Part shown: positions 37,851 to 62,106 of the stretch, one piece after another
Layout: every line of letters begins with the position of its first letter
How positions within the stretch are numbered: the first letter of the stretch is position 1
Origin: Williamsia sp.
Lineage (GTDB): Bacteria; Bacteroidota; Bacteroidia; Chitinophagales; Chitinophagaceae
Direction: 5' to 3'
Assembly: GCA_015069695.1 (NCBI GenBank)
Contig: JADCRZ010000028.1
Location: 1-64,000, forward strand
DNA length: 64,000 bases
Made by a program: the position numbers and the translations under genes
Notes under the pieces: model-generated
The model's database searches: none
The model's input: the letters and a program-made list of their open reading frames with translations, nothing else
What the model was told of the DNA's origin: nothing

Positions 37851-37888
37851 GCTTACTAACCAATCACTCACACGATAAAATCAAGTTG

Positions 37889-38731: not shown

Positions 38732-38811
38732 CCGGGGAGCCAGCCAATGCAATGGGCAGGCTTGATACAACCCTGCCATTCTATCACCTGGATCAGCCAC
38801 AACTAACTGAC

Positions 38812-45040: not shown

Positions 45041-46855
45041 TTATGTTGCAGCAGGTGTTGCTTCCCTTTTCTGCAGCAGGTCAAAGCGGAAATTGGCATC
45101 GATTTCTCCCTTGCCGACTTCTTTTTTCCTTGCCAGCCAATGAAGGGTCTGTCCATCAAACCAACGGACCCGTTTCCATACCATGCTGAGCGCTACGCCG
45201 GTCCGCGGAATCTCTTCTTCGAAGATCAGGAGCGGGGCAGGTTTTTCATTCTCCGGCTTTCCTGTCCATCCCAGCAAACGGGTTCGCGGCCGGATGCGTA
45301 CCGGCTGAAAATCATTTGATACCCGGGGCGTCGCGGCCCTTTGCAGCATGACCTTTCGCCTGCCCGCAAGCTCGAGCTGGGCCGGTTCCACCGACATGGG
45401 AATAAAGGGGATCCTGTTTTCCGCCATGAGGGTGCCTGCCTTGTACGCCCATCCTTCTGAGAGCAGCTTGCCGGGCCCTGCCGGCGACAGCGGCGTTTCA
45501 AGTGATCTGATCCACAGCCCTGTTTGTTTGGCCAGTGTTTCTCCCTCCCGTCCGCCTCCGTACGGACTGGCAATAATTTCTTCCACACCCCATACCATGT
45601 TGGCCATTTCATCGCGTACAAAAGAAACCTTTTCAACCGGTTTGCTTTCTTCCACAAAAGGAGCGGTGTTGGAAAGAAAAAGCCATTGCTTTTTGTCTTC
45701 GCCCTGTGTTTGAAAAAAAGACCAGTTCTTCTCTGGCGGGATTTCTGCCAGCCTGGTTTCTTTGCCAAAAATATCTGTTACTACCATACCTGTTATCCGG
45801 CATATGCTGCCGCTTGGGAACCGGATAGGGGCTACAAACCAATCGTTCCCATATACCAGTCCAAACTCGGCGAAGAGCATCTTGCTCAATTCTGTAGAGG
45901 CAGGCCTGATAGAGCCAAAATCAACCTGTCCGTCTTCCATTTCCCACAACCGTTTGGCAGGCATGCCGCGAAACCGCACGCCGGCAGGGATAACGGTTTC
46001 TGCCGACAGCACGGGGGTTTCTCCGCTCCATGCCGGCACTCTTTGGCTCTCCTGTAAAGGCTTTGCCGTAAACCCATGCCATTCCACGCCATCACCATCG
46101 TATTCTTCTTTCGAAAGCGTTTGTGGTTCCCCGTTAACGCCGCTGAAAAGGAGACTGGGCTGGTATTCCAGGTGCTGTGGATGCCAGCTGGTTTTCTGCG
46201 AAATTTTTTGTCCGAATACCCGCTCAAACCATTGCATAAATTCCTGCCCTGCTGCATCTACAACCGGATTGGCCTGATCCAGAAAACCGGACGCAGGCTT
46301 CCCTGCCCGCAAAGCTAGCAGGAGGGCATAGCCATCGGCGGCCCTTCCGCCCGCTAAGGCACCCGTGAGCCCGATCGAAGTTTCGTCGCTGAATTTTTGT
46401 GCATGCTGGAACAGGTAGGCGCGGTCACCGGTTCCTGTTAAGGGGATAGGAACCTGGAAAGGCAGCCTGCTCCTGAACTGTTGGATCAGTTCCTCCGTTT
46501 GCACACCTGCTCTTTTTCGTAAGATCCTCTCCCAATGCCGTCCCATTTCCAGGCGGTCCGCAACAGAGGGGATAAATTCTTCCCTTTCTATCGGCAGCTC
46601 CAGCGGGCCCTGGTTCAGGTCAAATGGCTGAAAAGGCATACCGGGTGATCCCACCCCTTTTACAGGAGATGCCTGGCCGGTGATGCGTGTAAAAGCGGCG
46701 GTGCCTGCGTCTTCACCGTCCAGTTCTCCAAACTGCCATTGGCGCGTAAGCATCCACAGTGCATCCCGGATCTCGAAACGCAGGGCATTGTCGAGCTGGG
46801 TTTCGTTTCTGGGCGAAGCTTCCAGTCTGTTCCACATCAAAATAGATTCTTCCAT
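45041..46855 (-). CDS. Conserved hypothetical protein, last gene of the large-protein cassette
   Basis: A 604 aa protein without signal peptide or membrane segment, starting MEESILMWNRLEASPR. The segment RDALWMLTRQWQFGELDGEDAG (near residues 30-51) is the most recognisable part; I recall similar segments in large hypothetical proteins of actinobacteria, myxobacteria and Bacteroidota, but know no function. The middle has beta-rich stretches and many Trp. It is the last gene in a minus-strand series, 20 bases after the 323 aa frame. It is likely to act with the other large proteins of the cassette. Confidence 0.8.
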   Translation of the reverse strand: MEESILMWNRLEASPRNETQLDNALRFEIRDALWMLTRQWQFGELDGEDAGTAAFTRITGQASPVKGVGSPGMPFQPFDLNQGPLELPIEREEFIPSVADRLEMGRHWERILRKRAGVQTEELIQQFRSRLPFQVPIPLTGTGDRAYLFQHAQKFSDETSIGLTGALAGGRAADGYALLLALRAGKPASGFLDQANPVVDAAGQEFMQWFERVFGQKISQKTSWHPQHLEYQPSLLFSGVNGEPQTLSKEEYDGDGVEWHGFTAKPLQESQRVPAWSGETPVLSAETVIPAGVRFRGMPAKRLWEMEDGQVDFGSIRPASTELSKMLFAEFGLVYGNDWFVAPIRFPSGSICRITGMVVTDIFGKETRLAEIPPEKNWSFFQTQGEDKKQWLFLSNTAPFVEESKPVEKVSFVRDEMANMVWGVEEIIASPYGGGREGETLAKQTGLWIRSLETPLSPAGPGKLLSEGWAYKAGTLMAENRIPFIPMSVEPAQLELAGRRKVMLQRAATPRVSNDFQPVRIRPRTRLLGWTGKPENEKPAPLLIFEEEIPRTGVALSMVWKRVRWFDGQTLHWLARKKEVGKGEIDANFRFDLLQKREATPAAT

Positions 46856-46875
46856 AGCAATAAGATTTAGCGCGT

Positions 46876-47847
46876 TTAAGATGAAAAAGTTTTACCGGGA
46901 GCGTTCGGCAGATCCACCACGGGGCCGGTGGCGATGGCCGGGCCTGCCATCCTGAAATCAAGATTGGGGGTGTTGTTCCTGGCATCCACGGGCGTCACCA
47001 GCGCAGGCAGGAACTGTCCCAGCCAGGTTTTTTGCAGGGTTTCTGTATCGACGGCTCTTTTTTTCGCCAGGGAAAATGTTTCGGTTACCGTATTCACCAG
47101 TACATTCCAGTCCCAGGCTCCCCTTTGCTCCGGTGTTACCGCCAGCAGCATGCATTGGGGTGCTTCACAGTCTGGTTCATTGTACTTGATGGCTGCGCCT
47201 GCGGTCAGCTCCGGCAGGGGAACCCGCTCGCGCCAGTCGTCCGTCAAAATACCGGCAACGGTTTGGCCTGCATCAAAACTGGCGGAGAATTCAAACGCCA
47301 GCGAAGTTGCCTGGGCAGGTGGAACCCAATTGGCGGGGAACTTACCGCCGATCCAGCAGTTGGGGGCATCAGCAACAAAGGGCAGCTGAAGGATCCTGAG
47401 CCGGCGGGTGCTTGCCGGCGCTCCAAAGACCTCCCGCAGGTTTCCCATCGTCTGGTAGTTGCGTGGGTTTTCCCGGACCAGGGACAAGCCCTGGAGCCAT
47501 TCTTCGGTTCCAAATTCTCCCGCTGCGGCAAGCAGGCCGGTATCATTGCAGGTGGCCGTGAGGGCGGCCGGATCGGGCAAGCGGAACCGGGGCAGTACCA
47601 GAAAATCTTCACCCACCAGCTTGCCGGCGATCTTTTGGAGCAAATCAAACCCTTTTTCCCCCCTGCTTTCAGGGACCAGGGAGCTGGTCCCGCCTGCGAT
47701 ACTTACGGCTTCGGCTAAGCGCTTTTGCATTTGCTCGATTACAAGCACTGCCTGATCAAGCAGCAGCCGGGCATTTGTCCGGTCACATACCCGCAGGCAT
47801 TTCGGGGCTGCATCCCAACAGCCCACCAGGAACCCTTGCAGGAGCAA
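46876..47847 (-). CDS. Conserved hypothetical protein, possibly the severed C-terminus of the 1450 aa protein
   Basis: A frame of about 323 aa that lacks an ATG near its start: the first possible codons are TTG (47847) and GTG (47826), and the first ATG is at 47730. The frame is open back to the TAA at 47908, which is the stop of the 1450 aa gene in the same reading frame. Recognisable blocks are VGEDFLVLPRFRLPDPAAL, GILTDDWRERVPLPELTAG and NTVTETFSLAKKRAVDTETL. Either this is a separate protein with a non-ATG start, or the two are one gene interrupted by a nonsense codon or read through it. No ribosome site is evident. Function unknown. Confidence 0.65.
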   Translation of the reverse strand: MLLQGFLVGCWDAAPKCLRVCDRTNARLLLDQAVLVIEQMQKRLAEAVSIAGGTSSLVPESRGEKGFDLLQKIAGKLVGEDFLVLPRFRLPDPAALTATCNDTGLLAAAGEFGTEEWLQGLSLVRENPRNYQTMGNLREVFGAPASTRRLRILQLPFVADAPNCWIGGKFPANWVPPAQATSLAFEFSASFDAGQTVAGILTDDWRERVPLPELTAGAAIKYNEPDCEAPQCMLLAVTPEQRGAWDWNVLVNTVTETFSLAKKRAVDTETLQKTWLGQFLPALVTPVDARNNTPNLDFRMAGPAIATGPVVDLPNAPGKTFSS

Positions 47848-47907
47848 TTGCAGCAGGCTGTCGAACGCTGCCTGTGAAGCAGCTGAGCTAAAACCGACCG
47901 GCAGGTT

Positions 47908-50900
47908 TTATTCCAGGGTTTGTCGCGCAGCATCCAGCTTTTGCATATAAAAGGGTATCGGACCTTTCTCGCCGGTTTCAGAAAACGCCCTGCAAACGGC
48001 CAGCAGGGCGGTATTCTCATACAGTTCAGCCGTGCCGGGCGTTCCTGTTTCAGCGGGTACCAGCCAGTCCTGCGGGCGCAGGGGACGGCTTTTTTCCAGC
48101 AAAGCGCCGATGGTGCGTATCAGCGGCATCAGCTCCTGCACCGCAAATTCATCCGGGGCGAAATCCGGTTCACGCTGAAAAGAAACTTCCAGCAGGCCTT
48201 TCGCATCCATGCCGGGCAGTTTGCGGGCTGCTTCTGTAAACAACCAGTTCAATCCGCTATCCTGCGGGCGCCCGCCCACTTTTTGCAGGAGATAGTAAAA
48301 ATCAATTGCCTGTATACCCAGCGAGCCAAGGCCGATCTTAACACCGGCATTGTCTTCGCGGCGCACCCACGCAACGATCTTTGCCGGCAGGGGCAGCTGG
48401 TCGGCCAGCCAGCGGTTGAGATCAGGAGAGAGGCGGGCCGCCAGCGACAAGGTTCCCTGGTTGGTCGACCATGTTCTCTCAGGCGCATCGGGTGCATTTA
48501 AAACAAATCCCATCCGGTGGGTGAGCACCCGGCTTTCGGCCGGCACCTGGGCGATTTCAGGCAGAAGAATGTCTGATCCTTCACTGGCGATGCGCAGGGC
48601 AGCCGCAGCGCGGTCCGGGTTTCCCTTCACTGTCTGGAATACACTTTCTGCCAGTACCAGATCACTGACCGCATCAAACTGGTCTCCTGCCTCCCCAACA
48701 ACTTTTTCAAAAGCTTCCTTTGCAGGTTGGTCGGTCTTGAAAACAGCCGTCAGCTTGTCGCTCCAGGTAGGTACTGTAAGCGGTTGCTGGTGTTTGTTCA
48801 CAATGGCAAGACCGTCGGTGACCAATTCCAGGTTCGTGATCTTCGCAGCTTCGTTGATCTGCTGGTAATCATCCCATTCATTGCGTTCGATATGGAGGGG
48901 AAAAGCAGTCCGCAGGTCCGGTACATACTGGGCCAGGGCAAGGTTGTCGTACATCCTTCTTTCGATGAAATAGCCCAACTGTTCGTTCAGCGAATGACCT
49001 TTGTTCACTGCTTTGAGCATGTCTACGGCCTGCCCCGTACGGGTTGCATCCAGGTTGGTGGCCAGGGTGGCGGATCCGGTTCCCTGCGAAAGGGAATGGT
49101 GTTCATAACCGGCCCGCAGGATAGATGCGGTGGCGGCATGCTCCAGCGAAGGTGTCAGTACAAACCCTTCACCGGTTGTAGCGCCGGCAGCCGGCACCTG
49201 CACGAGCTGGTTGCCCGGAAGTGCTTGTTGCAGGGCCGTAGCCGGATCGCTGCCCAGGTATACAAAGACCTGTTTTTTTATTGTGGCTATCTGTGCTGGC
49301 TTGAAAGTGGAAAAATCAAATACCGGCATCACGGCGTTCTCATTTCCTTGCACGCCTGGCACGATCACAGGCGGGGCTTTGATTTCCTGCACTTGTACCC
49401 AGGGCGTAAGGCCGGGTTGCAGGTTCTCCAGGTATCCATAAGCACCGATGTAGATGCCTTTTTCAAACCCGGCCTTTTTTCTTTGCGTGCCGAGCCTTGA
49501 GAGCACCAATCCCTGCAGCCAGGCATCCAGCCGGTAGCTGCACAGATCGATGTGTTCGCAGCTTAAACGTTCCAACCGGTTGATGGGTAAGGAAGCCAGT
49601 TCTGTCAGCGAAGCCATCACTTCTTTCAGGGTGCCGAGCAGATCAAAGAGGTAAAGCGGTTCTTTCATCTTTTCCAGGATGGTGCTGTCAACGCGTTTTC
49701 CGCTGCCCAGGACCTCTTCAAAAAAAGCCCATTTGCCTTTGCGCGTTTCAAACGTGCTGTTGCTGACTCCCAGGGCCTGCAGGAGGGATCTGTGCTCGTT
49801 GGATATCCCTGTACCTCCCAGCACATATTCCATTTCAAAGTCAAGCCGCGCCAGCGGACTTACAAGCTGCCGCTCCAGCTGCACCAGGTTAACTGCTGCG
49901 CTTACCCATCCCTGTAAGAGAGAGAAGCGGGCCATGTAAAACAGGAGCCTGGAGGTGCGTTGCACAACGAACTGGCTAAACCCGGGGATAGTATGGTTCT
50001 TCAACTGCTCCAGGGTTGCGCCCGGCAGCAGGCCCAGGTAGTTCATGCCATTGTCCAGGAGCGGCGTTGCCACGTCCGCATCTTCCAGCGCCTGGTCAGT
50101 CAGCTTGTAATTTTCATCATCAAAGAATTTACCCAGCATCCCTGTCCGGGGATGAACAGGTTCGTTCCAGGCTGTGGCGCTTTCGAGCTTTGTTTTGAAT
50201 GCGCCGGGGTTCAGCCTGATGCCTGCTTTTTCAGCACCCGCAGGATCGTTGCGGTAGTTGATATTCCAAAGCAGGTTCTCGCCGGCAACCAGGCGCCTGA
50301 AATAGCGGGTAGAGCTGGCCTGGTAGGCAAGCAGCTCGCGGAACTCCCTGTTCAGGATCTGCTCGTCCTTGTTTTGAAACACCCCTTTCATGGTTTTTAC
50401 ATTGCTGCTGAGCCGGCCCCATTGGTCATCCAGTTTTTTCAGCCATTTCACCAGCCGGTTTTCCTGGTTGGTTGCGCCCGGGTCTGTTTTCCACGCTGTC
50501 CAGGACGTTGCCGGCACAATGCCATAAGGCTGTTTGCCGATGCGGAAGGAGGGTAGCAGTCCGCGTGCGGTGACCCAGTTCTGAAAAAATGATTTTATAA
50601 AAATTGCATCTGCATCAGTAACACCGGGGCGCAGGTGGTTGTCGAGATAATAGCCCAGGGTGCCCGGCCAGAGTGCCCTGTTCATCAGCAGGGCCTCTTC
50701 TCCCTCCTTGCCGCCGCTATTCGCAGTGTTCTTAAAGATACCTGCGTCAACCCCCAGGGCCGTGGTCAGCCGTTGTGCATCTGAACGAGGGTCTCCTGCT
50801 GCCGGGGCGGAAAATTCCAGCCGGAAGGATTCTTCATCTGTAAGGCCGGCCGAGCTGAAGCCGGCAGGCTGGCCCGGTAAATTGTTGGTGGCCGTGCCTT

Positions 50901-52260
50901 GTGGCAGGAAGGCCAGGCTATCGGGTCTGTAACGGTGGTTGTCAAACAACTTTGTCAGCAGGCGGCCACCCTCCGGTGCATCGGCGCCCATTTTCACCCC
51001 CAGCACAACCAGCCGGTCGATACCAGCCTGGTACTCTGCTTTGGAAAGAGGGAACCGGATCGCCATGCCCAGTTTTTCTGCTTCAGCCAGGTCGGTGAGC
51101 CAGCGGATGGAAGGGGGAAGCGTCAATACCTGGTCCTTTTCTGCAAAAGCCGTTTCTTCTTTTTCGTCGGGGTCAAAACCCAGTTGCAGGTAATCAGGAA
51201 CAGCCGCACCCCCGAGTTCCCGGGCCGCCAGGTTGGGATTCTTAAAATAAACCCGTACGGTGAACTGTTCAGGAAGCAGGTCGGTTTTCGGCGGCAGGGT
51301 CCAGCTCTCGGATTTGATGGAAGGAACAGGAAATTTATCATCGGGTATGGTCACCAGGTCCGGACTGAAATTGTCTGGAAAATCAACCGGGCGCATTACC
51401 CGGGCGATCCAGCTGGCGCGGTGGGCGAGGCATTCAACGCGCAATTGTTTCCAGGCTGTGAGCTGCTTGTCTTCTTTTGTTTTCAGGGCCGTGGGGTCTG
51501 TCCCGTTTTTGCGGAATTCCCTTTCCGCGTCCCACATCTGTTGCCAGAATGCTTTGGCGGCAGCCAGTTCAATGTCGGTGATGGCGGTTTCATGGGTGTG
51601 CAAAAAGATGTCATCCGGAAAGATGCGGATCCACAAAACCCATTCATCTTCTACTTTTTGCCAGCGGCTCTTAGGCGTTCCGGTCGATGTTTGCTGGTTT
51701 AAACTGCTGATCAGGGCCGGCACGCCGGGTGCGGAATTGTGGGAAAGCGAATAGGCCTGCGAGCTGATGGCGGCAAACGGATCTGCTTTTGGCTTCAGGT
51801 CGGGGAACAGGGCCCGGAGGCTCTGGCTTTGTGCAGGTGTGACCTTGTTAATGTCTACCAGCAACTCGTCGGGGATGTTGCGGGCAATGTATTTGGTAGT
51901 GAGAAAACGGGTCTGTATTTTCAGCGGCAGCAGCAACACGGGGGTGGCATCGTTCAGGTTAGACAAGATGCGGCTTTGAATACCGTGTGCTTTAAACTCT
52001 TCCCGCGCAGCGCTCAATCCATTTTGCGCTGCACTCAAGTTTTGCTGGCTGGATGATAACCGCGCCACAAGCTGGTCCCTTTCAAGCCGCAGGGGTGCGT
52101 CAGCAGGCAATTCCGCGAGCAGATTGCTCTTTAGGAAAAACGAGATCTGCTTTTCAAGGGCCAGCATTTGCTGGCGGGCCAGGTAATTTTCCTGAAAAGC
52201 CGCTTCATAGCTGCGTTTGCTTTCAATGTACTTTTTCTGGCTTTCTTTGAACAATGCCAT
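47908..52260 (-). CDS. Very large conserved hypothetical protein (1450 aa)
   Basis: A 1450 aa protein without signal peptide or membrane helices. Residues 1-95 form a charged, Gln/Glu-rich coiled coil. Notable motifs are IRIFPDDIFLHTHE (211-224), QGTATNN (454-460) and IGKQPYGIVPATSW (574-587), blocks I associate with conserved but unassigned large proteins of soil bacteria. The C-terminal third has the long stretch of mixed alpha/beta sequence. The stop TAA at 47908-47910 is in frame with the following 323 aa frame. It starts 35 bases after the 985 aa gene. No enzyme signature was seen. Confidence 0.85.
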   Translation of the reverse strand: MALFKESQKKYIESKRSYEAAFQENYLARQQMLALEKQISFFLKSNLLAELPADAPLRLERDQLVARLSSSQQNLSAAQNGLSAAREEFKAHGIQSRILSNLNDATPVLLLPLKIQTRFLTTKYIARNIPDELLVDINKVTPAQSQSLRALFPDLKPKADPFAAISSQAYSLSHNSAPGVPALISSLNQQTSTGTPKSRWQKVEDEWVLWIRIFPDDIFLHTHETAITDIELAAAKAFWQQMWDAEREFRKNGTDPTALKTKEDKQLTAWKQLRVECLAHRASWIARVMRPVDFPDNFSPDLVTIPDDKFPVPSIKSESWTLPPKTDLLPEQFTVRVYFKNPNLAARELGGAAVPDYLQLGFDPDEKEETAFAEKDQVLTLPPSIRWLTDLAEAEKLGMAIRFPLSKAEYQAGIDRLVVLGVKMGADAPEGGRLLTKLFDNHRYRPDSLAFLPQGTATNNLPGQPAGFSSAGLTDEESFRLEFSAPAAGDPRSDAQRLTTALGVDAGIFKNTANSGGKEGEEALLMNRALWPGTLGYYLDNHLRPGVTDADAIFIKSFFQNWVTARGLLPSFRIGKQPYGIVPATSWTAWKTDPGATNQENRLVKWLKKLDDQWGRLSSNVKTMKGVFQNKDEQILNREFRELLAYQASSTRYFRRLVAGENLLWNINYRNDPAGAEKAGIRLNPGAFKTKLESATAWNEPVHPRTGMLGKFFDDENYKLTDQALEDADVATPLLDNGMNYLGLLPGATLEQLKNHTIPGFSQFVVQRTSRLLFYMARFSLLQGWVSAAVNLVQLERQLVSPLARLDFEMEYVLGGTGISNEHRSLLQALGVSNSTFETRKGKWAFFEEVLGSGKRVDSTILEKMKEPLYLFDLLGTLKEVMASLTELASLPINRLERLSCEHIDLCSYRLDAWLQGLVLSRLGTQRKKAGFEKGIYIGAYGYLENLQPGLTPWVQVQEIKAPPVIVPGVQGNENAVMPVFDFSTFKPAQIATIKKQVFVYLGSDPATALQQALPGNQLVQVPAAGATTGEGFVLTPSLEHAATASILRAGYEHHSLSQGTGSATLATNLDATRTGQAVDMLKAVNKGHSLNEQLGYFIERRMYDNLALAQYVPDLRTAFPLHIERNEWDDYQQINEAAKITNLELVTDGLAIVNKHQQPLTVPTWSDKLTAVFKTDQPAKEAFEKVVGEAGDQFDAVSDLVLAESVFQTVKGNPDRAAAALRIASEGSDILLPEIAQVPAESRVLTHRMGFVLNAPDAPERTWSTNQGTLSLAARLSPDLNRWLADQLPLPAKIVAWVRREDNAGVKIGLGSLGIQAIDFYYLLQKVGGRPQDSGLNWLFTEAARKLPGMDAKGLLEVSFQREPDFAPDEFAVQELMPLIRTIGALLEKSRPLRPQDWLVPAETGTPGTAELYENTALLAVCRAFSETGEKGPIPFYMQKLDAARQTLE

Positions 52261-52295
52261 AACAAGGTTTTTAAAGATGAGGAGGCACGAAAAGA

Positions 52296-55253
52296 TTATT
52301 TTACCAACAGGGATGCATGGATGAAGATCTGCACGGGTCTTTGCTGAAGGATGGCTGCCATCTGGGCCGCATCTCCGGTTCCTGCAGCCGGGTCAGCTGT
52401 AACCACCGCCTGTCCTTTGCCCCACTGCAAGCCATCATTTACAGCAGGTTGGGGAGGGATGTGTTTTTCCAGGTCAAGATAATCCACGCCGGCTGGCAGG
52501 TCGGTCCAGGCCAGGTCGTTCCAGGTGGCCATGCCGCCCGGGGGCCGGCTCTGGTCCAGTCCGAAATGCATCTCACCCGGCCGCTCTGCAATCACAAAAT
52601 ACCAGCTGCCTCCGCCCGGCGTGCCGGCCACCGGGATGCCCAGTGCTTCTTCCCGGGTCAATTCAAAACCTGCCATTAGAAAATCCCCCTGCAAACCGGA
52701 AAGAAAGATGGGTGCTTTAACCGGCACAGCCGGGTCGGGTATGCGGATGCCGTTCGCATCCAACCGGGCCTTCTGCGCATATACAACGAGGTTAGGATAC
52801 TTTGTGATCAGTTCGGCCCTGATCACAAATACCAGGGGATTGGGAAAAACACCTGCCGGCGCGTTCTTACCCAGGCTTTCTGAAAGCGGCCAGGTTCGGA
52901 TCGGCTTGATGTCGCTCCTGTCAGTTCCGGAGGGCGCTGCATCACTGGTATCCCAGAACTGCCGGAAATAAGTGGCATTCAGGTCGGCTGGGTAGCCTCT
53001 CCAGACAAACTCAGCGCCCATTTCATGGTTCATGCCCGCCAGGTAAGCTTCTATAAACGGGGCATTGGCCTGCAGCAGTACAAACGACTCCGGTTCGATC
53101 CGGTCCAGGTTGGGAATAAACAACTCCGGTTTGAGCCGGGCCAGCTTCTCGTATGCAGGATCGGTAAAGGCCGGGTTGAAGCTGTTGGGTGATATCACAT
53201 CGCTTTGGGCCACGGCAGGAGGGGCATCTGCGGGGATCACAGCTTTGTACTGCAACTGAAAACTAAATTCCGGTGTAATTTTCTTCAGGATCTTTTCGCT
53301 GAAAGTGCTCAGCTGGAACTGGGGTGGCATGGTAAGGAGTGGCTTGTTCAGCACTTTGTCCTGGAGGTCTTTCACGATCAACGGCAGTTTGGCCCGGTCT
53401 GTCAGAAAATAGCCGAAATTATCTCCATACCAGTTTGCGTTCTGCAGCGCCAGTGCCACGTTGGGCCAGGGCCCGGGCTGGTACAGGAACCGGGTTGCAT
53501 CGACCGCACCCAGCTGGGAAGAGCCAAAATTTTGAAAAGCAAGGTCGGCAAGTGCCGCTAACCCGATCACGAAAAACTGGGTTTGTCCCGACATCACAGC
53601 CCTGGTGAGTGTATTGGCCAGCTTCACCCGTTTCATCACAGGACCGTTTGCGCGCGTGATGCGGCGGTAACCGGGCTGTACAAAGGCAGCATCGGTTTTT
53701 GAAGCCGCCAGCTTGCCTGCGATCGAGATGTTTGGCTGGTCTGATTTAACCAGGGGCTGGATGGAATGGGTAAGCGCCAGGATCTTGTTGGCGCTGTCTC
53801 CCGTCATGTCTGTTCCCTGCACAAAATGTTTCTGGAAAAGGGCTTTGGTTATTTCCTGGGCAAAATTGAGCCGGTGCAGATCCCTATTGAGCCGGCGCCG
53901 GTAATCAGACAATTGCTCCCAGGCCCGGCTCATATACTCTTCCTGGTTTTCTTTTACGGCTGCCGCTCCCAGTCCGGCCGCTACGCGCATGGCAGGATCC
54001 AGGTTGAGCTGGTCGAGCCAGGTATCGGGAAGCTGGCATTTCACTGTTGCCGTGCCATCCCCTTTTACATACCATCTTCCATAAATGGGCGGTACGATCA
54101 GCGGATCGTCCTCATCGTTGCCCGGCAGGGGAATGCGCTCCTGCAGCTCGGCCCTGGGCCTTCGCCTGTAATCAATGCCTAGGTTAAGGAGTTTGGAAAA
54201 CTGATCCACAAATCCCCGTTCCGCCGGTCCGGTTCTCTGGGTGAGGTTGGGCGTGGCAGCACCGATCAGCCGCAGCGCTCCTTCGAAAGGAAGAAGGCCG
54301 GGTTTGTTACCGGGATGGAGCGATCCATTGTAATCAAACAGGTCTCCGTAGTTGATGTCTGATGCGTCCATCCAAAGTTTTCCGGTATCTGTGCCCGACA
54401 GATCGCGGGGAACGATCTTTTTGGCCAGCTGTTCGAAGCCTTCTGAGCCTGTCTGAAAACTCCATTCGTAATAAACCGGAAAGCGGTCCGCTCCTGCAGC
54501 GCTGCCTTCCCAGGAAACCTGGTAGCGGCCAACGGCTTCGATCTCGCTCTTTTTTCCGCCCAATCCTGCCACCCGTCCCTTTTCAAAACTGGGGATCAGA
54601 AAAGCCCAATAGGTGGTAGCTTGTTTGAGTTTGCGCGGACAAAACAACCGGCATACACCCAGGTTGGGATTTGCTTTCAGCGAAGCTGCGAGCCGGAGGT
54701 TGCGGGCGGCGGGGTCGGCCAGTTCGCTTTTCAGCAGGCTGCCATCGTTGATTTGTACATGGGCCGTTGCCCAAAGCTGGGAGGCAGGCGGAAAAACACG
54801 GGAAAGAGGAGCTGCCAGGATCCTGATCACTTTGTTTCCGGGTCCGCCATTTTGCGGCTGCCGCTCAAACTCCTTTTCTTCCAGGACGATCAGGGTAAGC
54901 CAGGGCCGCAGACGCCGGTCGCCTGCAGCTTTGGCCGGACTGTACCGCCACAAAAAATCTTCTTCATAAAATTCGATATAGGGAAAATAATTGGGTTCAA
55001 AATTCTTTGTTCCTGCGCCGGGGTCGGTCTTTACAATGGCGGACGTGCTGATGCCTGTTATATCGCCGGGGCCGAGCAGGGAAAAAGGCTGGTTAACGGT
55101 CGCTCTTTCCGCATCATCGGCGATGATCCTGATGCCGGCCTGGATGGTGGGGCGGGCATCAGGGTGGGGCTGGGCGGTCAGCGGATCGGGGTCGGCAATT
55201 TGTTGCGCGAGGCCGCGGCGCAGCCAGGGAAGGAAAACATATTGATTGGCCAT
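52296..55253 (-). CDS. Large conserved hypothetical protein (985 aa)
   Basis: A 985 aa protein starting MANQYVFLPWLRRGLAQQI, with no signal peptide or membrane helix. Blocks that look conserved are GPGDITGISTSAIV, NFEPNYFPYIEFYEEDFLW, LRPWLTLIVLEEKEF, and near the end NATYFRQFWD and GSWYFVIAERPGEMHFGLD. The pattern of short hydrophobic strands and Trp/Tyr-rich loops suggests a beta-rich scaffold. I recall the same blocks in unassigned proteins of other phyla but not a function. It is third in the cassette, 26 bases after the DUF6603-like gene. Confidence 0.85.
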   Translation of the reverse strand: MANQYVFLPWLRRGLAQQIADPDPLTAQPHPDARPTIQAGIRIIADDAERATVNQPFSLLGPGDITGISTSAIVKTDPGAGTKNFEPNYFPYIEFYEEDFLWRYSPAKAAGDRRLRPWLTLIVLEEKEFERQPQNGGPGNKVIRILAAPLSRVFPPASQLWATAHVQINDGSLLKSELADPAARNLRLAASLKANPNLGVCRLFCPRKLKQATTYWAFLIPSFEKGRVAGLGGKKSEIEAVGRYQVSWEGSAAGADRFPVYYEWSFQTGSEGFEQLAKKIVPRDLSGTDTGKLWMDASDINYGDLFDYNGSLHPGNKPGLLPFEGALRLIGAATPNLTQRTGPAERGFVDQFSKLLNLGIDYRRRPRAELQERIPLPGNDEDDPLIVPPIYGRWYVKGDGTATVKCQLPDTWLDQLNLDPAMRVAAGLGAAAVKENQEEYMSRAWEQLSDYRRRLNRDLHRLNFAQEITKALFQKHFVQGTDMTGDSANKILALTHSIQPLVKSDQPNISIAGKLAASKTDAAFVQPGYRRITRANGPVMKRVKLANTLTRAVMSGQTQFFVIGLAALADLAFQNFGSSQLGAVDATRFLYQPGPWPNVALALQNANWYGDNFGYFLTDRAKLPLIVKDLQDKVLNKPLLTMPPQFQLSTFSEKILKKITPEFSFQLQYKAVIPADAPPAVAQSDVISPNSFNPAFTDPAYEKLARLKPELFIPNLDRIEPESFVLLQANAPFIEAYLAGMNHEMGAEFVWRGYPADLNATYFRQFWDTSDAAPSGTDRSDIKPIRTWPLSESLGKNAPAGVFPNPLVFVIRAELITKYPNLVVYAQKARLDANGIRIPDPAVPVKAPIFLSGLQGDFLMAGFELTREEALGIPVAGTPGGGSWYFVIAERPGEMHFGLDQSRPPGGMATWNDLAWTDLPAGVDYLDLEKHIPPQPAVNDGLQWGKGQAVVTADPAAGTGDAAQMAAILQQRPVQIFIHASLLVK

Positions 55254-55279
55254 ATGGCTGGTTTATAGAGATGAAACAA

Positions 55280-58200
55280 TCAAACAAGATCCTGTTCCTG
55301 CACGACCTGTATCTTGCTGAAAGGCTTGTCTTTTTGAATTTTCCAAAGCTCGTAATAAGCGTTTGTCATGGATTTAAGCGGCGGTACGGCGCTGATCCTG
55401 TTTCCGCTGACGGCATCTGCCAGTACATAAGCAGGCTCCCGTTGAACGGGTTGGCGTGCCATCACTTCCCGGGCTGCCCGGTCCTGCCGGCCCTGCTCAG
55501 AGCGTCCTGCTGAATTGTTGGATGCCCAGCGTTGGAAATGGGTTTCCGGTAGCGCGGGAGCAGGTGTTGTAACAACAGGGGCCAGGGGATCGTAGAAGGC
55601 ATTTTCGTAGGAAAAAGGACTTACCTGCACCGCACCGGTGCTTACAGTTTCCTGGTCGCTGAAAGCACAGCCGGCCTTCATGCGCTCGAATGATTTCCGG
55701 GAAAGCTTCTGCGCATCGTTCAGGTCAAGAAACAGGGCAGGCGCGAAATAGTCCTGCAATTCTGTTACCTGTATCTGCTGCTGGGCGGAGAGGAAGGGCG
55801 CCAGATCAAATTTTCTGTAGCCCTTTGCGCGTTGAGGACCCCGCTTATCGATTCTGATGGCAAGCGGAACCACTTGCTGCATCAGTTCAAGCCGGGCAAA
55901 CGGGTCTGTTAGAATCGGCTGTACGCCTGGTTGTTGCTGGGAAGTGTCCTGGCTGTCTGCCTCCGTATTGCGCAGTACGATGCCGGTTGAGCGGCCTGAT
56001 GGGAGCGTAGTTTGCCAGCTTGCTTTATCCCTGATCGCAGCCTGCAGCAAGGGCAGTATCTCTGTTTCCTGCTTGCCTTCGGTCAGTTTTTCTCCGGTTG
56101 ATTTATCGAAATCTACTTCGTAATCCCATATCCAGATTTCAAAGCTGGCTTTTCCCTTGATGCGCCAGGGATGGGTGCCCGAGAACTGGCCTTTCACGCT
56201 CACACCGGCCAGCCGGCTATCGCCCCAGAATATGCGCAGCTTTCCCTCGAAATCAACCACAAAATAAAACGGATCAAAATGAAACAGGGCATCTACCGAC
56301 AAGCCTGCTTCGAGGCGGAACTTCGACCAGCGCATTTTAAAGTCAATGGCAAAACCGGCCTGCACCGTATTGGAAGTAAAGGCAATATAACAGGAAAGGA
56401 CAAGCGAAGGATTGGCACCATCCAGCAAGGGCACGGTGATGCGTTGCGGCTTTTGCGGCAGGTTCAATCCGCCCGGCACCTGGAAGGCAGGGTGCCAGCC
56501 GCCTACAGCAAATAAGAACACCGGGTCTGCACCCCAGCGGTAGCGCAGGAACAGCTGTCCCTTGATGTCGAAGACCAGGAACTTGGAATCATAGATGGCA
56601 GCGTCTATTGAGAAGATCTTTTTTTCCAGGTCCAGCGCAACGAGGAAGTTTACCTGGAACCGCAGGATCTTTTTGCCGCCCGCCTCTACAGTCAATTTGA
56701 TCACACCCGCCAGGGCCAGCTTAACAGGATCCGGTACTTCTATCAGCAGGCCGGCTTTTATGTCAACGAGCCCGGAAGTTCCCCAGCCGATGCGGGCCAT
56801 GATGGCAAACACATAGCGCCCCTCGGCAGCCGGGAACAGGGCATTCATGGTGCTTACGATGGCTGGTGCGTTGGCCACAGGGTTGTCCGGGAAAAGGATA
56901 GAATTAAACCGGTCATCCTTCACGGCATTCTGCAAGTTCTCCAGGTTCATAGAACGGTGCAGCGCTACCAGTACGCCTACACCTTTTAGCTTGAATCCAA
57001 AGGGCAGGTCGAAAGCAGGTGTAAACTCAACCGTGGCCAGCAACAGGAATGAAAAGCCTTTTTTTCCATCGGGCAACCGCGTGAGGATAACGGCCACGAC
57101 TTTGAGGGTCAGTCCTGACTCTTTTCCGCCGGAACCCAATTTGACCGACAGTTCGCCGGCTCCGTAATACTGGTGGCTTTGCTGGTCTATGGACAGAAAC
57201 CCGCCTCCCTGTATCTGCGCAGCTTTTACAAGAAAGCCGATGCCGGTAGGCGGTTTCAGGCCAATATCCAGGTTTGCCCCGCCCAGGTTGCCCTTTGCAT
57301 TTTTGGGAAAACCAAGGTTCAGCTGAAAGCCAAGCCGGTCAACAGACAGGGCGAACGGACCCAGCGCGAGGGCTATCATGGCTGAGGATTCCAGGGAAAT
57401 GCCCCGTGCGGTTTTTGCTTCATCCAGCAGGGGTTTTACCCCCATGTAAATGGATGGTATGTTCAGCGCGCCAAACAGTTTTTTGTCTACTTTGAACAGC
57501 AGCAGGAGGCCTTCATTGCCATCCAGGCCCTGTAAGGAAAACTTGTTGAGCAAGGCGCTGTATACAATAGAAAAGCTGGCGTTCACTTTTGCTGCTGCAC
57601 TGTCCGGCAGGATCTTTTGCAAAAAGCCATCCCGTCCTTCTCCCGACAACGAAAGACCGAAATTGTTGAATGCAAGCCTGAACTCCGCATCCTTCTTCGG
57701 TTGTTCCCCAACGATCGTATCCTTGAGCTCGATCACAAATGAGATATCGCCGCTATGAACCGTGTTCGTGCCAGCTGTCTCTGCTGGTTGTGCGCCTGCG
57801 AACCTTGCCACGAGGATGGGTCCTTGTACAGCAGTAGAAGCCGTCGGTTCGATGCCGTGGCCCCACAGAAGGTTGCCGGTTACATTTGCCGGAAAAGAAA
57901 GGCTGAACCGGCCATTCCCCGTTCCGGGTTCTGCACCGCCGCCCACCGGATCACCGGGGTTTAATTCCATGCCCAGCAGATACTGGAAACCGAGCGGCTG
58001 TGCACCGGGTGCATGGTCAGGCGGAAAAACAGGCAGGGTTGCAAAGGATAGGAAAGAGTCCCTGAAAGCAGCGCCAAACAGCTCATCTCCGATCCACTCG
58101 TCCTGTTCCGGGTCAAAGTAAGCACCGGGAATAAACTGCATCTGCATCAGGCGGTCGGCAACACCGGCAGCAAGGGGAAACGGATCTTTTGCCGGAGACA

Positions 58201-58927
58201 GCTCATACCCAAAGTTGAAAAGAAATTTTCCGGCCCCTTTGATCCTTTTCTCCAGGATGGTGGAAATGACGGATAATATGAGGAAGATGCCCCTGGTGAT
58301 CCGCTGGTGGTCGTCAGGTTTTTGATCGCCAGCCGGCCGCAGAAAATCAGTGTTGAAATGGCCATCAAAGATGCCGGTGATCTGGTTGGTAAGTGCGATC
58401 AGCGGGTAAAGCACCAGATCAAGTGCCCGTTTGGTTTCATTGTATTCATCTGAAAAAACACCTGTGGCATCTGCCCAGGCAGCCAGGGCGGGCACTTTGT
58501 TCTTAAACAAGTTCAGGGTAAGAAACCGGGAGACAGCGCGCACCGCATTCACGATGGCTGTTTCCCTGTCTTCATCGGGTGTATCGCCCTCTTCGCTTTC
58601 CAGTCCGAACCAGTCGCATGATTCCAGCATTTCGTAAAGGGCTCCAAACACCTTGTACAGCTCTGCCAGCAGGAGGCCCAGTGCAACGATGTTGCTGACC
58701 TTTGGCGCGAGGTTTTGGCCGGACCCCGTTGCCTTTCGAACATCGTCGAGTACCTGGAGGAGTTTGGTGAGCAGGGCATCTGTTTTGGCCTTGTCCTGCG
58801 GCGATGCTTTTTCGCGCGCGCCGACAGATGCCAGGAGCTCAGCCCGGAAGTGTTCATCTTTGGCCAACTCGGCGAGGGGAGACAACCAGTCGTCTATATG
58901 GTTTACAAGGCGGGTGATCCAGTTCAT
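55280..58927 (-). CDS. DUF6603-like large protein (1215 aa)
   Basis: A 1215 aa protein. The first 250 residues are helical (MNWITRLVNHIDDWL at the start). From about residue 600 to 1010 it is made of repeated beta strands with the pattern of DUF6603: FAIMARIGWGTSGLVDIKAG, EVPDPVKLALAG, IDAAIYDSKFLVFDIKGQL, YRWGADPVFLFAVGGWHPAF and YIAFTSNTVQAGFAIDFK. Such proteins are large, soluble-looking and without known function; the alternating strands suggest a barrel- or solenoid-like shape. No signal peptide is seen. It lies 33 bases after the PhoD-like gene. Confidence 0.82.
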   Translation of the reverse strand: MNWITRLVNHIDDWLSPLAELAKDEHFRAELLASVGAREKASPQDKAKTDALLTKLLQVLDDVRKATGSGQNLAPKVSNIVALGLLLAELYKVFGALYEMLESCDWFGLESEEGDTPDEDRETAIVNAVRAVSRFLTLNLFKNKVPALAAWADATGVFSDEYNETKRALDLVLYPLIALTNQITGIFDGHFNTDFLRPAGDQKPDDHQRITRGIFLILSVISTILEKRIKGAGKFLFNFGYELSPAKDPFPLAAGVADRLMQMQFIPGAYFDPEQDEWIGDELFGAAFRDSFLSFATLPVFPPDHAPGAQPLGFQYLLGMELNPGDPVGGGAEPGTGNGRFSLSFPANVTGNLLWGHGIEPTASTAVQGPILVARFAGAQPAETAGTNTVHSGDISFVIELKDTIVGEQPKKDAEFRLAFNNFGLSLSGEGRDGFLQKILPDSAAAKVNASFSIVYSALLNKFSLQGLDGNEGLLLLFKVDKKLFGALNIPSIYMGVKPLLDEAKTARGISLESSAMIALALGPFALSVDRLGFQLNLGFPKNAKGNLGGANLDIGLKPPTGIGFLVKAAQIQGGGFLSIDQQSHQYYGAGELSVKLGSGGKESGLTLKVVAVILTRLPDGKKGFSFLLLATVEFTPAFDLPFGFKLKGVGVLVALHRSMNLENLQNAVKDDRFNSILFPDNPVANAPAIVSTMNALFPAAEGRYVFAIMARIGWGTSGLVDIKAGLLIEVPDPVKLALAGVIKLTVEAGGKKILRFQVNFLVALDLEKKIFSIDAAIYDSKFLVFDIKGQLFLRYRWGADPVFLFAVGGWHPAFQVPGGLNLPQKPQRITVPLLDGANPSLVLSCYIAFTSNTVQAGFAIDFKMRWSKFRLEAGLSVDALFHFDPFYFVVDFEGKLRIFWGDSRLAGVSVKGQFSGTHPWRIKGKASFEIWIWDYEVDFDKSTGEKLTEGKQETEILPLLQAAIRDKASWQTTLPSGRSTGIVLRNTEADSQDTSQQQPGVQPILTDPFARLELMQQVVPLAIRIDKRGPQRAKGYRKFDLAPFLSAQQQIQVTELQDYFAPALFLDLNDAQKLSRKSFERMKAGCAFSDQETVSTGAVQVSPFSYENAFYDPLAPVVTTPAPALPETHFQRWASNNSAGRSEQGRQDRAAREVMARQPVQREPAYVLADAVSGNRISAVPPLKSMTNAYYELWKIQKDKPFSKIQVVQEQDLV

Positions 58928-58960
58928 GGTGCGTTGATTGAGGGGACTTGGGGTGGGTTC

Positions 58961-61831
58961 TCAGGCGCCTTCCAACGGGAAGGCAGGTCTTTCGGCCAGC
59001 AGCTTCTTTTTCAGGCTGGCCCGGTATTGAACAAAGGGCGTAGCCAGGCTTCCCGGGTTTTTGTTGTCGGGCGGCGGCAGGTCCGGGATAAAAAACATGG
59101 AGTGCAGAACAGACAGCTCTTCTTCCTTTTTCTCAAAATGGATCATGGCTACATGGCTGTACCAGTTCACAAAGCGGTTTATATGGGTGCGGCTAAAGAA
59201 AGCATTCCTTGATAAGATGGTTTGCAGTCCGGCTTTGTACGCATTGCCGCTGTACACATGCGGTGGCAGGTCGGCGGCAAGCTGGGGGAAGGCTGCCGGG
59301 AGCGCTGCAAAGCGTGCTGCATCTGTCCGTTCATCAGGCAGCACTTTCATGCTCCAGCGGAAGGCCGGCTCGGGACAGTCTTGCTTGAAAACGATCCGCG
59401 GCAGGATCTGAACAGGTGCTGCAGGGTCAGCTGGTTGAAATTCTTGGAGCGGCCAGTCACGCAGGGAAACAGAAACCGCTTTTTGCGAAAGCGCATAGGC
59501 ATACCTGGTAGGAAACTGGCCTTGCCTTGCGTCTGCAAACTGACCGGGTTCTGTCTGCACCCGCAGCTTGAGGGCTTTGATCTCTTCTTCTTTTTCCCAG
59601 CCAATAGAAGTAAGGCAGGCAAATTCCCTGTTCAACCCGCCTGCAAGCGCCACCTGCGTAAGGGCGGCAGGCAGAAGGCCCAGCATCTGGCCTTCCGGCT
59701 TGATATTCTTGAGCGAGCTGGAAACCAGTTGCACAAACCTGGCCGCTTCAGGGGCTCCTTTCACCCAGTAGTCCATTTCACTGGTAATGCCATAGTGAAC
59801 GTCACCAGCAAGAAAGACAACTTTTTTGAGCGTGGCACAGCGTTTCAGCACGGCTTCAAAACCGGCCTCGTGTATCGACCAGTGCTCAACATCCAGGCTC
59901 TCCGAACCTGTATGGTGCACTTTCCTTCTTCCGATGTCAAATTTTTCCCGGAAGCTGTTTTTGATTTCCAGCACCCTGGATACAGTCGGCTGCCCGATGG
60001 ATTCCATCACTGCCAGTCCCAACACGGGCGCACCTGAAACAACAAAGGCGAGTTCAGTGCCGATAGGCATGGCATTATCAGGTATTTGTTCTATCAGGGC
60101 CTCTTTGCGGAGCAGGTTGGGTGGCGCGTCCTGTCCTGCTGAAAAGTCGCGGCGGGTGCGGGTATCAAGAACAAATACTTTGGCAGCACCGATGCGCAGC
60201 GAGCAATTCCATTTTACGGGCGGCTTATCGGACTCGTCAAAACCAAGGGCTTTGCGGAATGCGGCCGTGATGGGGGCGTATTGGGCAAGGTCCTTGTTCC
60301 TGTTCACCAGCTCTTCATCGCTGAGTGGTTTGAACAGCTGAACATAGGCCGGTATACTTTCGAGGAGCTTGCCGGGGGCATCGTTGCCAGGCGTTTTGTC
60401 GGACCAGGCTTTGGGATCGTTTCCCCAGGCCTGGAAGAGGGCATAGGCCAGCAACCCGTTGCGGATAATGGTTTCGCCGAGCCGGTTGTTTAACACCCGC
60501 TTAGACCACCGTCCGGTGATATACCAGTCGTCGGTAATATCATGGTCGTCGAAGCTCATGATAGAAGGGGTGTTGGCAAGTACCCTGCGCACGGCTTTTA
60601 GTCCGGCCCTGAATTCCAGTACCCTTTCCCTTGATTTGGGGGCATCGGCTGCTGATTGCTGTTCACGGCTTTCCCCGTATCTTTTCAGGGCGTCTACCAG
60701 CACGGGATCTGTAGGGGAGGGGTTCAGGGCCAGTGTGCGTTCTTCCTCACTCATGGTGTCCCAGCCGGCCGGTACTTCTGCTTTTTCTTTCTCCTGTTCT
60801 TCCCCTTTTTTTACCAGGCCAAAAAGATAAGGGCGGGTTTCGCTATTGTCGTTGATCCGGTCTTTAAAAACGGCCTCGGCAGCTGGCAGCTCGATATACC
60901 GGAAAGCGGCTTGCCGGGTGGCGTCATCAAAATATTTCTCGAGCCAGAGCACATCGCACCATTGAAAAAGATAGGCTGCGCAGAATTCTGCAAAAGAATA
61001 CAGGTGGTTTCCTTCTTCCCCCGTAAAGCCGGAGTAAAAATTGGTGGCCCTGCGCCCGGGCGGAAGAGCAGCAGAGATGGCCTGTATCCATACATAGTTC
61101 GCATGCTGGTCGGCCTGTTTGGAAAAATCAAGTTCAGGGTTGAGGGGAAAAGGCAGCTCTTCTACTTTCTGAAGCAAATAGTTGCCGGCATCCGTGTAAT
61201 GCTGGATCATAAAGTCGGTGCAGTCATCGGCATAGATCTGATCGCCCGTATGGAAGAGGTAATGGGGGCGGGAACGCGGATCATGGATCCTGTCAGGTTC
61301 TATAAAATCAGGCTCCATCACGGTGGCGAGGATGGCCAGCGCATCCCGCCCCCTTCCATGAGGTTTGCGGCAGGAGCCATGGGCGATGCGCAGCTTCTCC
61401 AATTGTTCCGGGGCCGCTACAAAAGAAGGCAGTTGACCTGCTTTAAATCCCAGCAGTTCGGGGCTTTGCAGCAGTCCGAGTGAAACCAGGTTTTCTGTTT
61501 CCTGGGCTCCCTCGAAAAAGAGCAGGTTGTAAGAAAAAATGCTTCCCGGGGTGATCGGTCCGTTTGTTTCAACGCTCAGCAAAGCAAGGTGTAAATGTTC
61601 GCCGATACGGAGGGTAGGGGTTTGGGAGGAAGCAAAAAGAACTTGTTTTTCCGGAAAGGCCGCACCCGATGGTGAACAGTAACCCGCATATATTTCCAGC
61701 ACCACATCACGCTGTGCTTTCAGGGCCACCCATACAGAAATCCTATCCGCTTCTACCCGGCGCAGCATGGGGCCGCAAAGGATCAGGGGCAAGTCGGCAA
61801 ACCGGGTGGACAGGGGATGTTGGAGCGGCAT
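58961..61831 (-). CDS. PhoD-like metallophosphoesterase (956 aa)
   Basis: A 956 aa protein, first gene of the cassette. The metallophosphoesterase core is of the PhoD/alkaline phosphatase D type: HGSCRKPHG (151-159), HTGDQIYADD (194-203), FDDHDITDDW (427-436) and AGDVHYG (675-681), with the metal-binding Asp, Asn/Asp and His residues in place. An N-terminal beta domain (residues 15-130, LILCGPMLRRVEADRISVWVAL) matches the PhoD N-domain. In contrast to secreted PhoD, no Tat or Sec signal is present, and a 250-residue C-terminal extension follows the core. It may act on cytosolic phosphodiesters or on the partners; substrate unknown. Confidence 0.88.
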   Translation of the reverse strand: MPLQHPLSTRFADLPLILCGPMLRRVEADRISVWVALKAQRDVVLEIYAGYCSPSGAAFPEKQVLFASSQTPTLRIGEHLHLALLSVETNGPITPGSIFSYNLLFFEGAQETENLVSLGLLQSPELLGFKAGQLPSFVAAPEQLEKLRIAHGSCRKPHGRGRDALAILATVMEPDFIEPDRIHDPRSRPHYLFHTGDQIYADDCTDFMIQHYTDAGNYLLQKVEELPFPLNPELDFSKQADQHANYVWIQAISAALPPGRRATNFYSGFTGEEGNHLYSFAEFCAAYLFQWCDVLWLEKYFDDATRQAAFRYIELPAAEAVFKDRINDNSETRPYLFGLVKKGEEQEKEKAEVPAGWDTMSEEERTLALNPSPTDPVLVDALKRYGESREQQSAADAPKSRERVLEFRAGLKAVRRVLANTPSIMSFDDHDITDDWYITGRWSKRVLNNRLGETIIRNGLLAYALFQAWGNDPKAWSDKTPGNDAPGKLLESIPAYVQLFKPLSDEELVNRNKDLAQYAPITAAFRKALGFDESDKPPVKWNCSLRIGAAKVFVLDTRTRRDFSAGQDAPPNLLRKEALIEQIPDNAMPIGTELAFVVSGAPVLGLAVMESIGQPTVSRVLEIKNSFREKFDIGRRKVHHTGSESLDVEHWSIHEAGFEAVLKRCATLKKVVFLAGDVHYGITSEMDYWVKGAPEAARFVQLVSSSLKNIKPEGQMLGLLPAALTQVALAGGLNREFACLTSIGWEKEEEIKALKLRVQTEPGQFADARQGQFPTRYAYALSQKAVSVSLRDWPLQEFQPADPAAPVQILPRIVFKQDCPEPAFRWSMKVLPDERTDAARFAALPAAFPQLAADLPPHVYSGNAYKAGLQTILSRNAFFSRTHINRFVNWYSHVAMIHFEKKEEELSVLHSMFFIPDLPPPDNKNPGSLATPFVQYRASLKKKLLAERPAFPLEGA

Positions 61832-62071: not shown

Positions 62072-62106
62072 AAAAAAGCGGACAACCCGCAGGCGCCCGC
62101 TTTTTT
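62072..62106 (-). terminator. Intrinsic terminator of the yellow/MRJP-like gene
   Basis: AAAAAAGCGG (62072-62081) pairs with CCGCTTTTTT (62097-62106), with a GC-rich 15-base loop that can pair internally. On the minus strand it ends in a T run about 20 bases after the stop codon at 62125. It isolates that gene from the PhoD-like gene further on and may act in both directions. Confidence 0.78.

What the first reader, a model, noticed from the sequence alone, without database searches (positions are those of the whole stretch)
45041..61831. A 16.8 kb cassette of giant, signal-less proteins led by a PhoD-like phosphoesterase and a DUF6603-like protein
Six consecutive minus-strand frames (956, 1215, 985, 1450, 323 and 604 aa) have gaps of only 20-60 bases and so form one operon. 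Only two can be placed in a family (PhoD-like; DUF6603-like), and neither has a known role in such a setting. The other four contain distinct, well-formed motif blocks (LWMLTRQWQFGE, FLPWLRRG, IFPDDI, YFRQFWD) that I recall from unassigned proteins in unrelated soil bacteria, which would suggest a conserved, mobile multi-protein system. None has a signal peptide or membrane helix, so the complex should be cytosolic or exported by an unusual route. By eye the DNA is richer in G+C than the flanking genes; this was not computed. The whole set may be a multi-component particle, a defence or toxin system, or a storage/assembly system; the sequence does not decide.
Basis: partly seen in the sequence, partly recalled or inferred. 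Interest (0 to 1): 0.88.

Follow-up and report, generated by a model that had tools for sequence, protein, structure and literature searches.

The report
Enzyme-swapping giant-protein operon of unknown purpose
A set of four giant, previously unstudied proteins travels between distantly related bacteria and archaea as one gene block and is each time paired with a different intact enzyme (a phosphatase here; proteases, a lipase-like enzyme or oxidases elsewhere), which suggests an unrecognised machine that carries exchangeable enzymes.

Summary
Two corrections. (1) The 1450- and 323-aa frames are one gene in nearly all relatives; here a single in-frame TAA, in a poorly conserved linker, separates them. 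(2) The PhoD-like gene is one of several interchangeable parts.

The core is DUF6603 (B), C, D+E and F. C-D-E-F occur in that order on one strand in 65 of 66 loci with enough sequence. In 296 Bacteroidota genomes the same six carry F and C, and all six carry B. Haloarchaeal plasmids have the set, one with the same PhoD-like gene. Core proteins are co-inherited (Mantel rho 0.65-0.91), whereas the enzyme upstream of B changes at least 12 times over 25 tree tips. Trypsin-like and subtilisin-like enzymes share a ~125-aa C-terminal domain found almost only at these loci.

C, D and F match nothing in Pfam, NCBIfam, PHROGs, PADLOC or PDB sequences. B is predicted as a long amphipathic beta-meander resembling outer-membrane barrels, but has no signal peptide and occurs in monoderms and archaea.

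Best reading: a four-protein assembly carrying an exchangeable enzyme. Assembly, export and target are inferred.

The parts
58961..61831 (-). A: PhoD-like phosphoesterase, 956 aa, the exchangeable enzyme of this copy
   Evidence: Pfam PhoD 42.6 bits, above cut-off. Aligned with 7 relatives from such loci, incl. a haloarchaeon: C154, D197, Y200, D428-D429-H430 and G676-D677-V678-H679 invariant. No signal peptide.
55280..58927 (-). B: DUF6603 protein, 1215 aa: helical N-terminus and long beta-meander
   Evidence: Pfam PF20248 E 5.8e-99. AF2 model of a relative (L128 B, 1134 aa, pLDDT 76.6, pTM 0.48) resembles large beta-barrels; strand faces strongly amphipathic.
52296..55253 (-). C: core protein with FLPWLRRG and YFRQFWD blocks, 985 aa, no family
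   Evidence: 53-row alignment A3; no PDB relative by profile; present in 52 of 52 F-bearing genomes.
46876..52260 (-). D+E: one core gene (IFPDDI block), about 1794 codons, interrupted here by a single in-frame TAA at 47908-47910
   Evidence: Same frame, one stop; single ORF of about 1640-2380 aa in nearly all relatives; no PDB relative.
47908..52260 (-).
46876..47847 (-).
45041..46855 (-). F: core protein with LWMLTRQWQFGE block, 604 aa
   Evidence: 66-row alignment A1, 28 invariant columns; 0 of 66 members match Pfam; AF2 pLDDT 79.7 with no PDB match at E <= 1e-3.
62078..62090 (-). Terminator-like hairpin separating the upstream MRJP-family gene from A
   Evidence: consensus match only, and the scan as a whole finds no more sites than shuffled sequence

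Best explanation
An exchangeable-enzyme system. Four co-inherited giant proteins (B = DUF6603, C, D+E, F) form the fixed core; the gene just upstream encodes the working enzyme, here a PhoD-like phosphoesterase, elsewhere proteases, a phospholipase-D-like enzyme, tyrosinase or a galactose-oxidase-like enzyme. SHOWN by sequence: fixed core order, co-occurrence and co-inheritance; replacement of the enzyme independent of core phylogeny; a common C-terminal domain joined to two unrelated protease folds and almost confined to these loci; catalytic residues present; no Sec-type signal. INFERRED: the four core proteins assemble into one large complex in the cytoplasm; the enzyme is loaded on it, in the protease versions through the shared C-terminal domain; B supplies an amphipathic beta-sheet that meets or crosses a membrane; the particle leaves by lysis or another non-Sec route and brings the enzyme to macromolecules or cells outside. 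The logic is that of modular payload devices, with unrelated parts.
For: Order C-D-E-F in 65 of 66 loci with enough upstream sequence. In 296 Bacteroidota genomes the same 6 have F and C, and all 6 have B beside C. B and C in 52 of 52 F-bearing genomes. Mantel rho F-C 0.79, F-D 0.79, C-D 0.91, F-B 0.70, B-C 0.65, none of 500 permutations as high. Enzyme type needs at least 12 changes on the F tree over 25 tips, close to random (shuffled mean 13.8). Enzymes named by Pfam: PhoD, S8 subtilases, PLD, Nal1-like protease, tyrosinase, galactose-oxidase-like. An HMM made only from trypsin-like C-termini finds subtilase C-termini at E 8e-10 to 5e-21 and two stand-alone 136-138-aa ORFs. That domain lies beside the core in 3 of 4 hits of the phylum sample and in about 20 of 22 hits in 24 core genomes. 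Archaeal copies: Salinigranum with a PhoD-like gene, Natrinema with another upstream gene. B strands: mean face hydropathy +2.16 / -0.84, difference 3.0 against 1.20 +/- 0.17 shuffled; nearest folds LptD, FimD/PapC, porins.
Against: No physical interaction, export or target is shown. The shared C-terminal domain is absent from the PhoD version, so loading of this copy's enzyme is unexplained. F has no informative fold match; C and D were not folded. The B model is of a relative, with pTM 0.48 and rmsd about 10 A to barrels, so 'barrel' is only 'amphipathic beta-meander'. The stop in D could mean this copy is decaying or wrongly sequenced.
Confidence: 0.5

Rival explanations
1. A released or surface-bound polymer-degrading complex for feeding (cellulosome-like in purpose): the core displays whichever hydrolase or oxidase suits the substrate; no attack on cells.
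For: All recognised enzymes can act on extracellular macromolecules or aromatics. Hosts are mostly free-living environmental organisms. No conserved immunity-like gene at the loci. In a haloarchaeon F carries a lamin-tail domain and D was annotated by RefSeq as a BGTF surface-domain protein.
Against: No carbohydrate-active enzymes seen, few of the enzymes are classical nutrient scavengers, and no signal peptides. A membrane-type beta-meander in B is not needed for this.
Confidence: 0.2
2. An accessory or payload module of extracellular contractile injection systems (eCIS): the enzymes or the whole complex are delivered by the contractile particle.
For: The start of an eCIS operon (Pvc16_N, sheath, tube, CIS_tube, baseplate) follows F on the same strand in three Chitinophaga and one Flavobacteriaceae locus, which lie in two separate clades of the F tree. 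The eCIS marker Pvc16_N is in 17 of 32 Bacteroidota core genomes against 62 of 290 others (Fisher p 3e-4).
Against: No eCIS gene in the window or in the other loci. A complete one-contig genome (G006) has the core but no Pvc16_N.
Confidence: 0.1
3. An intracellular lipid- or membrane-handling complex: B is a hydrophobic beta-groove or belt (LptD and ApoB100 are among weak matches) and the enzymes process lipids or envelope proteins of the cell itself.
For: Amphipathic strands in B; weak Foldseek matches to LptD and ApoB100; PLD and phosphatase enzymes in some loci.
Against: Most enzymes are proteases or oxidases. Patchy, horizontally spread distribution, 2 of 37 genomes of the family, is not that of a core envelope function.
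Confidence: 0.12
4. No joint system: neighbouring genes that travel together by linkage only.
For: No interaction is demonstrated. One locus (L034) has F without the rest beside it, and in three the order is altered (L025, L059, L105).
Against: Fixed order at about 30-38% protein identity across phyla and domains, exact co-occurrence in the phylum sample, and coupled divergence.
Confidence: 0.04

Closest known systems
DUF6603 family (Pfam PF20248)
   Same: B is a full-length member, E 5.8e-99.
   Different: A family of unknown function; no paper in the searched library names it. Pfam says nothing of the linked C, D, F and enzyme genes.
PhoD-like phosphatases (Pfam PF09423)
   Same: A carries the family profile and the conserved C, D, Y, D-D-H and GDVH positions.
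   Different: No Tat or Sec signal, 956 aa with large extra regions, and encoded in an operon with giant core genes. PhoD of Bacillus is a Tat-exported scavenger (own knowledge).
Extracellular contractile injection systems (eCIS: Afp, PVC, MAC)
   Same: Large operon, signal-less exchangeable effectors, patchy spread over environmental bacteria and archaea; adjacent in four loci (PMC8213781).
   Different: No sheath, tube, baseplate, spike or terminator genes in the window or in the loci other than those four; no sequence relation of C, D, F to CIS proteins.
Tc toxin complexes
   Same: Giant subunits plus an exchangeable enzyme (own knowledge).
   Different: No Tc or RHS Pfam family in any core protein at E <= 1; the enzyme is a separate upstream gene; found in haloarchaea.
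Outer-membrane beta-barrels (LptD, FimD/PapC usher, porins)
   Same: Predicted fold of B: many long amphipathic antiparallel strands; Foldseek E down to 2e-5, VIA Z up to 14.5.
   Different: No signal peptide; present in Actinomycetota, Bacillota and archaea, which lack such an outer membrane; low TM-scores, rmsd about 10 A.

Membership tests
DUF6603 (PF20248) | Profile match over the curated cut-off | tested here: met
   332 bits, positions 3-501 of 502
PhoD-like phosphatase (PF09423) | Profile match over the curated cut-off | tested here: met
   42.6 bits, cut-off 27
PhoD-like phosphatase (PF09423) | Conserved metal and active-site residues (Cys, GDQxYAD, DDH, GDVH) | tested here: met
   Invariant in 8 aligned locus members; that these are the catalytic residues is own knowledge of the family
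PhoD-like phosphatase (PF09423) | Phosphoesterase activity | not testable with these tools
   needs an assay
eCIS | Sheath, tube, Pvc16, baseplate genes in the locus | tested here: not met
   phmmer with five eCIS proteins from each of two loci finds none in the window; they lie beside four related loci only
Tc toxin complex | TcA, TcB or RHS-type domains | tested here: not met
   no such Pfam family at E <= 1 in the six frames; sequence level only
Outer-membrane beta-barrel protein | N-terminal export signal | tested here: not met
   N-termini without signal, heuristic scan
Outer-membrane beta-barrel protein | Closed barrel of amphipathic strands | tested here: inconclusive
   amphipathic strands shown; model pTM 0.48, matches at rmsd about 10 A
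Known anti-phage defence system | Match to PADLOC models in core proteins | tested here: not met
   no hit for the six frames; only a generic subtilase model for a relative's enzyme

The most novel reading that the evidence does not exclude
A previously undescribed class of cell-exported nanomachine, shared by bacteria and haloarchaea, in which a four-protein core with a self-inserting giant beta-sheet protein delivers interchangeable enzymes, some loaded through a common C-terminal docking domain.
Probability: 0.33. Interest if true: 0.92.

Novelty: categorically new. Interest (0 to 1): 0.78.

Why it matters
Three protein families of 600-1900 aa, conserved in fixed order over at least ten bacterial phyla and in haloarchaea, have no name, no structure and no paper that I could find. 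The exchangeable enzyme and its portable C-terminal domain give a direct handle: they predict a loading interface that can be tested with two proteins in a test tube. If the core is a delivery or display particle, it would be a signal-less route for enzymes in monoderm, diderm and archaeal cells alike.

Tried and rejected
Pfam, NCBIfam, PHROGs and PADLOC on all frames: nothing for C, D, E, F; Pfam on 66 F relatives: none. Profile searches of PDB sequences: C and F none, B and D only helical or coiled-coil chance hits; the shared C-terminal domain and PhoD: no relative by sequence. Fold search with F: no PDB match at E <= 1e-3, best VIA Z 4.1, an FN3-like stretch only; this does not show a new fold. 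GC excess as proof of recent transfer: dropped because GC3 is host-like. Phage origin: one weak hit in the phage collection and one fragment in viral contigs. A third protease type (L112, L125, L097, L115: 'HG/HA...GC' motifs as in clan CD peptidases): not confirmed. Type II X against D or F by hhalign: no relation. Literature searches found no description; subscription journals are not covered.

Full report
Observation. A is PhoD-like and B is DUF6603; C, D, E and F have no Pfam, NCBIfam or PHROG family. GC is 55.1% against 49.5% in the rest of the window, but GC3 is host-like, so the excess is not good evidence of recent arrival. No frame begins with a signal peptide by inspection and hydropathy.

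D and E are one gene. Relatives encode D+E as a single ORF of about 1640-2380 aa. In the window both parts are in one frame, separated by one TAA at 47908-47910. The stop sits in a poorly conserved linker and the downstream part is still well conserved. The first in-frame ATG of E is 39 codons in, and no clear ribosome-binding site precedes its TTG (by eye). Sequencing error, a young nonsense mutation, a real gene split and read-through all remain possible; I have not altered the sequence.

Conservation. A scan of one genome per species with F returned 80 loci: Bacteroidota, Chloroflexota, Cyanobacteriota, Pseudomonadota, Myxococcota, Actinomycetota, Bacillota, Nitrospirota, Acidobacteriota, Planctomycetota, Verrucomicrobiota and others, including many isolates. 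In 65 of 66 loci with enough upstream sequence, C-D-E-F stand in that order on one strand; B precedes C where the sequence reaches it, with exceptions in L025, L059 and L105. All 52 F-bearing genomes tested have C and DUF6603. These loci were chosen by F, so a sample not chosen by F matters more: of 296 Bacteroidota genomes, the same six have F and C, and all six have B next to C; six more have DUF6603 above cut-off without C or F. The sample includes the window's own genome. The plasmid collection adds haloarchaea: Salinigranum marinum carries PhoD-like / DUF6603 / C / D / F, the architecture of the window, and Natrinema carries the core with another upstream gene.

Horizontal spread. On the F tree the Bacteroidota label needs at least 12 changes forced by well-supported branches, and the two copies in the window's own genome (contigs C144 and C155) lie far apart (a quick tree with some long branches). 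Only 2 of 37 genomes of the window's family have it. Some loci come from MAGs and could be mis-binned, but isolates alone give phylum mixing, for example Paenibacillus with Nitrosomonas.

Exchangeable enzyme. The gene just upstream of B and on its strand differs: PhoD-like in 8 of 50 genomes (most adjacent to B), trypsin-like proteases with His/Asp/Ser blocks visible in the sequence (weakly related to plant NARROW LEAF 1), often two or three in a row; subtilases; a PLD-like enzyme; tyrosinases, one with a galactose-oxidase-like protein; and several unknowns. On the F tree the enzyme class needs at least 12 changes over 25 tips against 13.8 in shuffles, while the core proteins co-vary strongly with each other. 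The core is inherited together; the enzyme is swapped.

A portable C-terminal domain. Trypsin-like enzymes of these loci end in ~125 aa with the block 'LxNxxRxVxVxWHRxxGP'. An HMM built from them alone finds the C-termini of subtilases at E 8e-10 to 5e-21 and two stand-alone ORFs of 136 and 138 aa. In the phylum sample three of four hits lie beside the core; in 24 core genomes about 20 of 22 do. A domain fused to unrelated catalytic folds and almost confined to one locus type is what a docking tag would look like; binding is inferred. The PhoD version lacks it.

Structures. F was modelled fairly well (pLDDT 79.7) but gave no usable match. B, modelled on the relative L128, has a helical N-terminus and a long antiparallel meander. 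Foldseek lists LptD, FimD/PapC ushers, SlpA and porins, VIA Z up to 14.5 at rmsd about 10 A. Its strands (mean 12.7 residues) have one hydrophobic and one polar face far beyond chance. An ordinary outer-membrane role is unlikely: no signal peptide, and DUF6603 loci occur in Actinomycetota, Bacillota and archaea. A soluble protein that meets a membrane, a lipid-binding belt or a hollow shell remain.

Link to eCIS. In three Chitinophaga and one Flavobacteriaceae locus, an eCIS operon follows F on the same strand, and these loci fall in two clades of the F tree. Pvc16_N is in 17 of 32 Bacteroidota core genomes against 62 of 290 others. Genome size and taxonomy confound this (eCIS in 89% of Chitinophaga, PMC8213781), and a complete genome (G006) has the core without Pvc16_N. 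I treat eCIS association as a lead, not the explanation.

A sister system. Genomes with DUF6603 but no F have another order: DUF6603, a ~750-aa protein, a ~1200-aa protein and kelch. The ~750-aa protein is a distant relative of C (hhalign E 1.1e-8, probability 95.6). In L131 a metallo-beta-lactamase-fold gene stands directly upstream of DUF6603. DUF6603 + C may therefore be the ancestral pair.

Verdict. The finding is real and more interesting than a six-gene oddity: a co-inherited four-protein core with a swappable enzyme, spread over two domains of life, without described function in the sources at hand. Assembly, export and target are inferences. Novelty is rated 'categorically new' because no known system shares the core; a description outside the searched library cannot be excluded.

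Noticed in passing
window 47908-47910: Single in-frame TAA splits the D gene; the following part is still conserved, so error, recent mutation, split or read-through.
   Followed up: partly
L129-L134 (e.g. L130:2-10426): A second DUF6603 locus type: DUF6603, distant C relative, ~1200-aa protein, kelch; one DUF6603 protein is 3184 aa (L129).
   Followed up: partly
L085 (own genome contig C155:22000-41999): Second, distantly related copy of the system in the same genome, with a trypsin-like protease instead of PhoD.
   Followed up: yes
L030, L036, L047, L063 downstream of F: eCIS operons directly follow the core on the same strand.
   Followed up: partly
L138:19974-22697: Haloarchaeal F carries a C-terminal lamin-tail domain; its D was annotated by RefSeq as a BGTF surface-domain protein.
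   Followed up: no
L110:755-7420 and L119: Algoriphagus B proteins of ~2200 aa with a long N-terminal repeat of beta-strand units before DUF6603.
   Followed up: no
G137:C1:573382-573744: The shared C-terminal domain at the end of a 482-aa frame in a genome without the core; possible orphan enzyme.
   Followed up: no
window 62125-63450: Major royal jelly/yellow-family (MRJP) protein next to the cassette, apparently a separate unit.
   Followed up: no
window 36816-40586: PhyH-like, short-chain dehydrogenase, ComA-like phosphosulfolactate synthase and aldo/keto reductase genes in a row on the + strand; possible sulfonate-related pathway.
   Followed up: no
L034:9938-11785: F gene separated from the rest of the core, which lies elsewhere in that genome.
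   Followed up: partly
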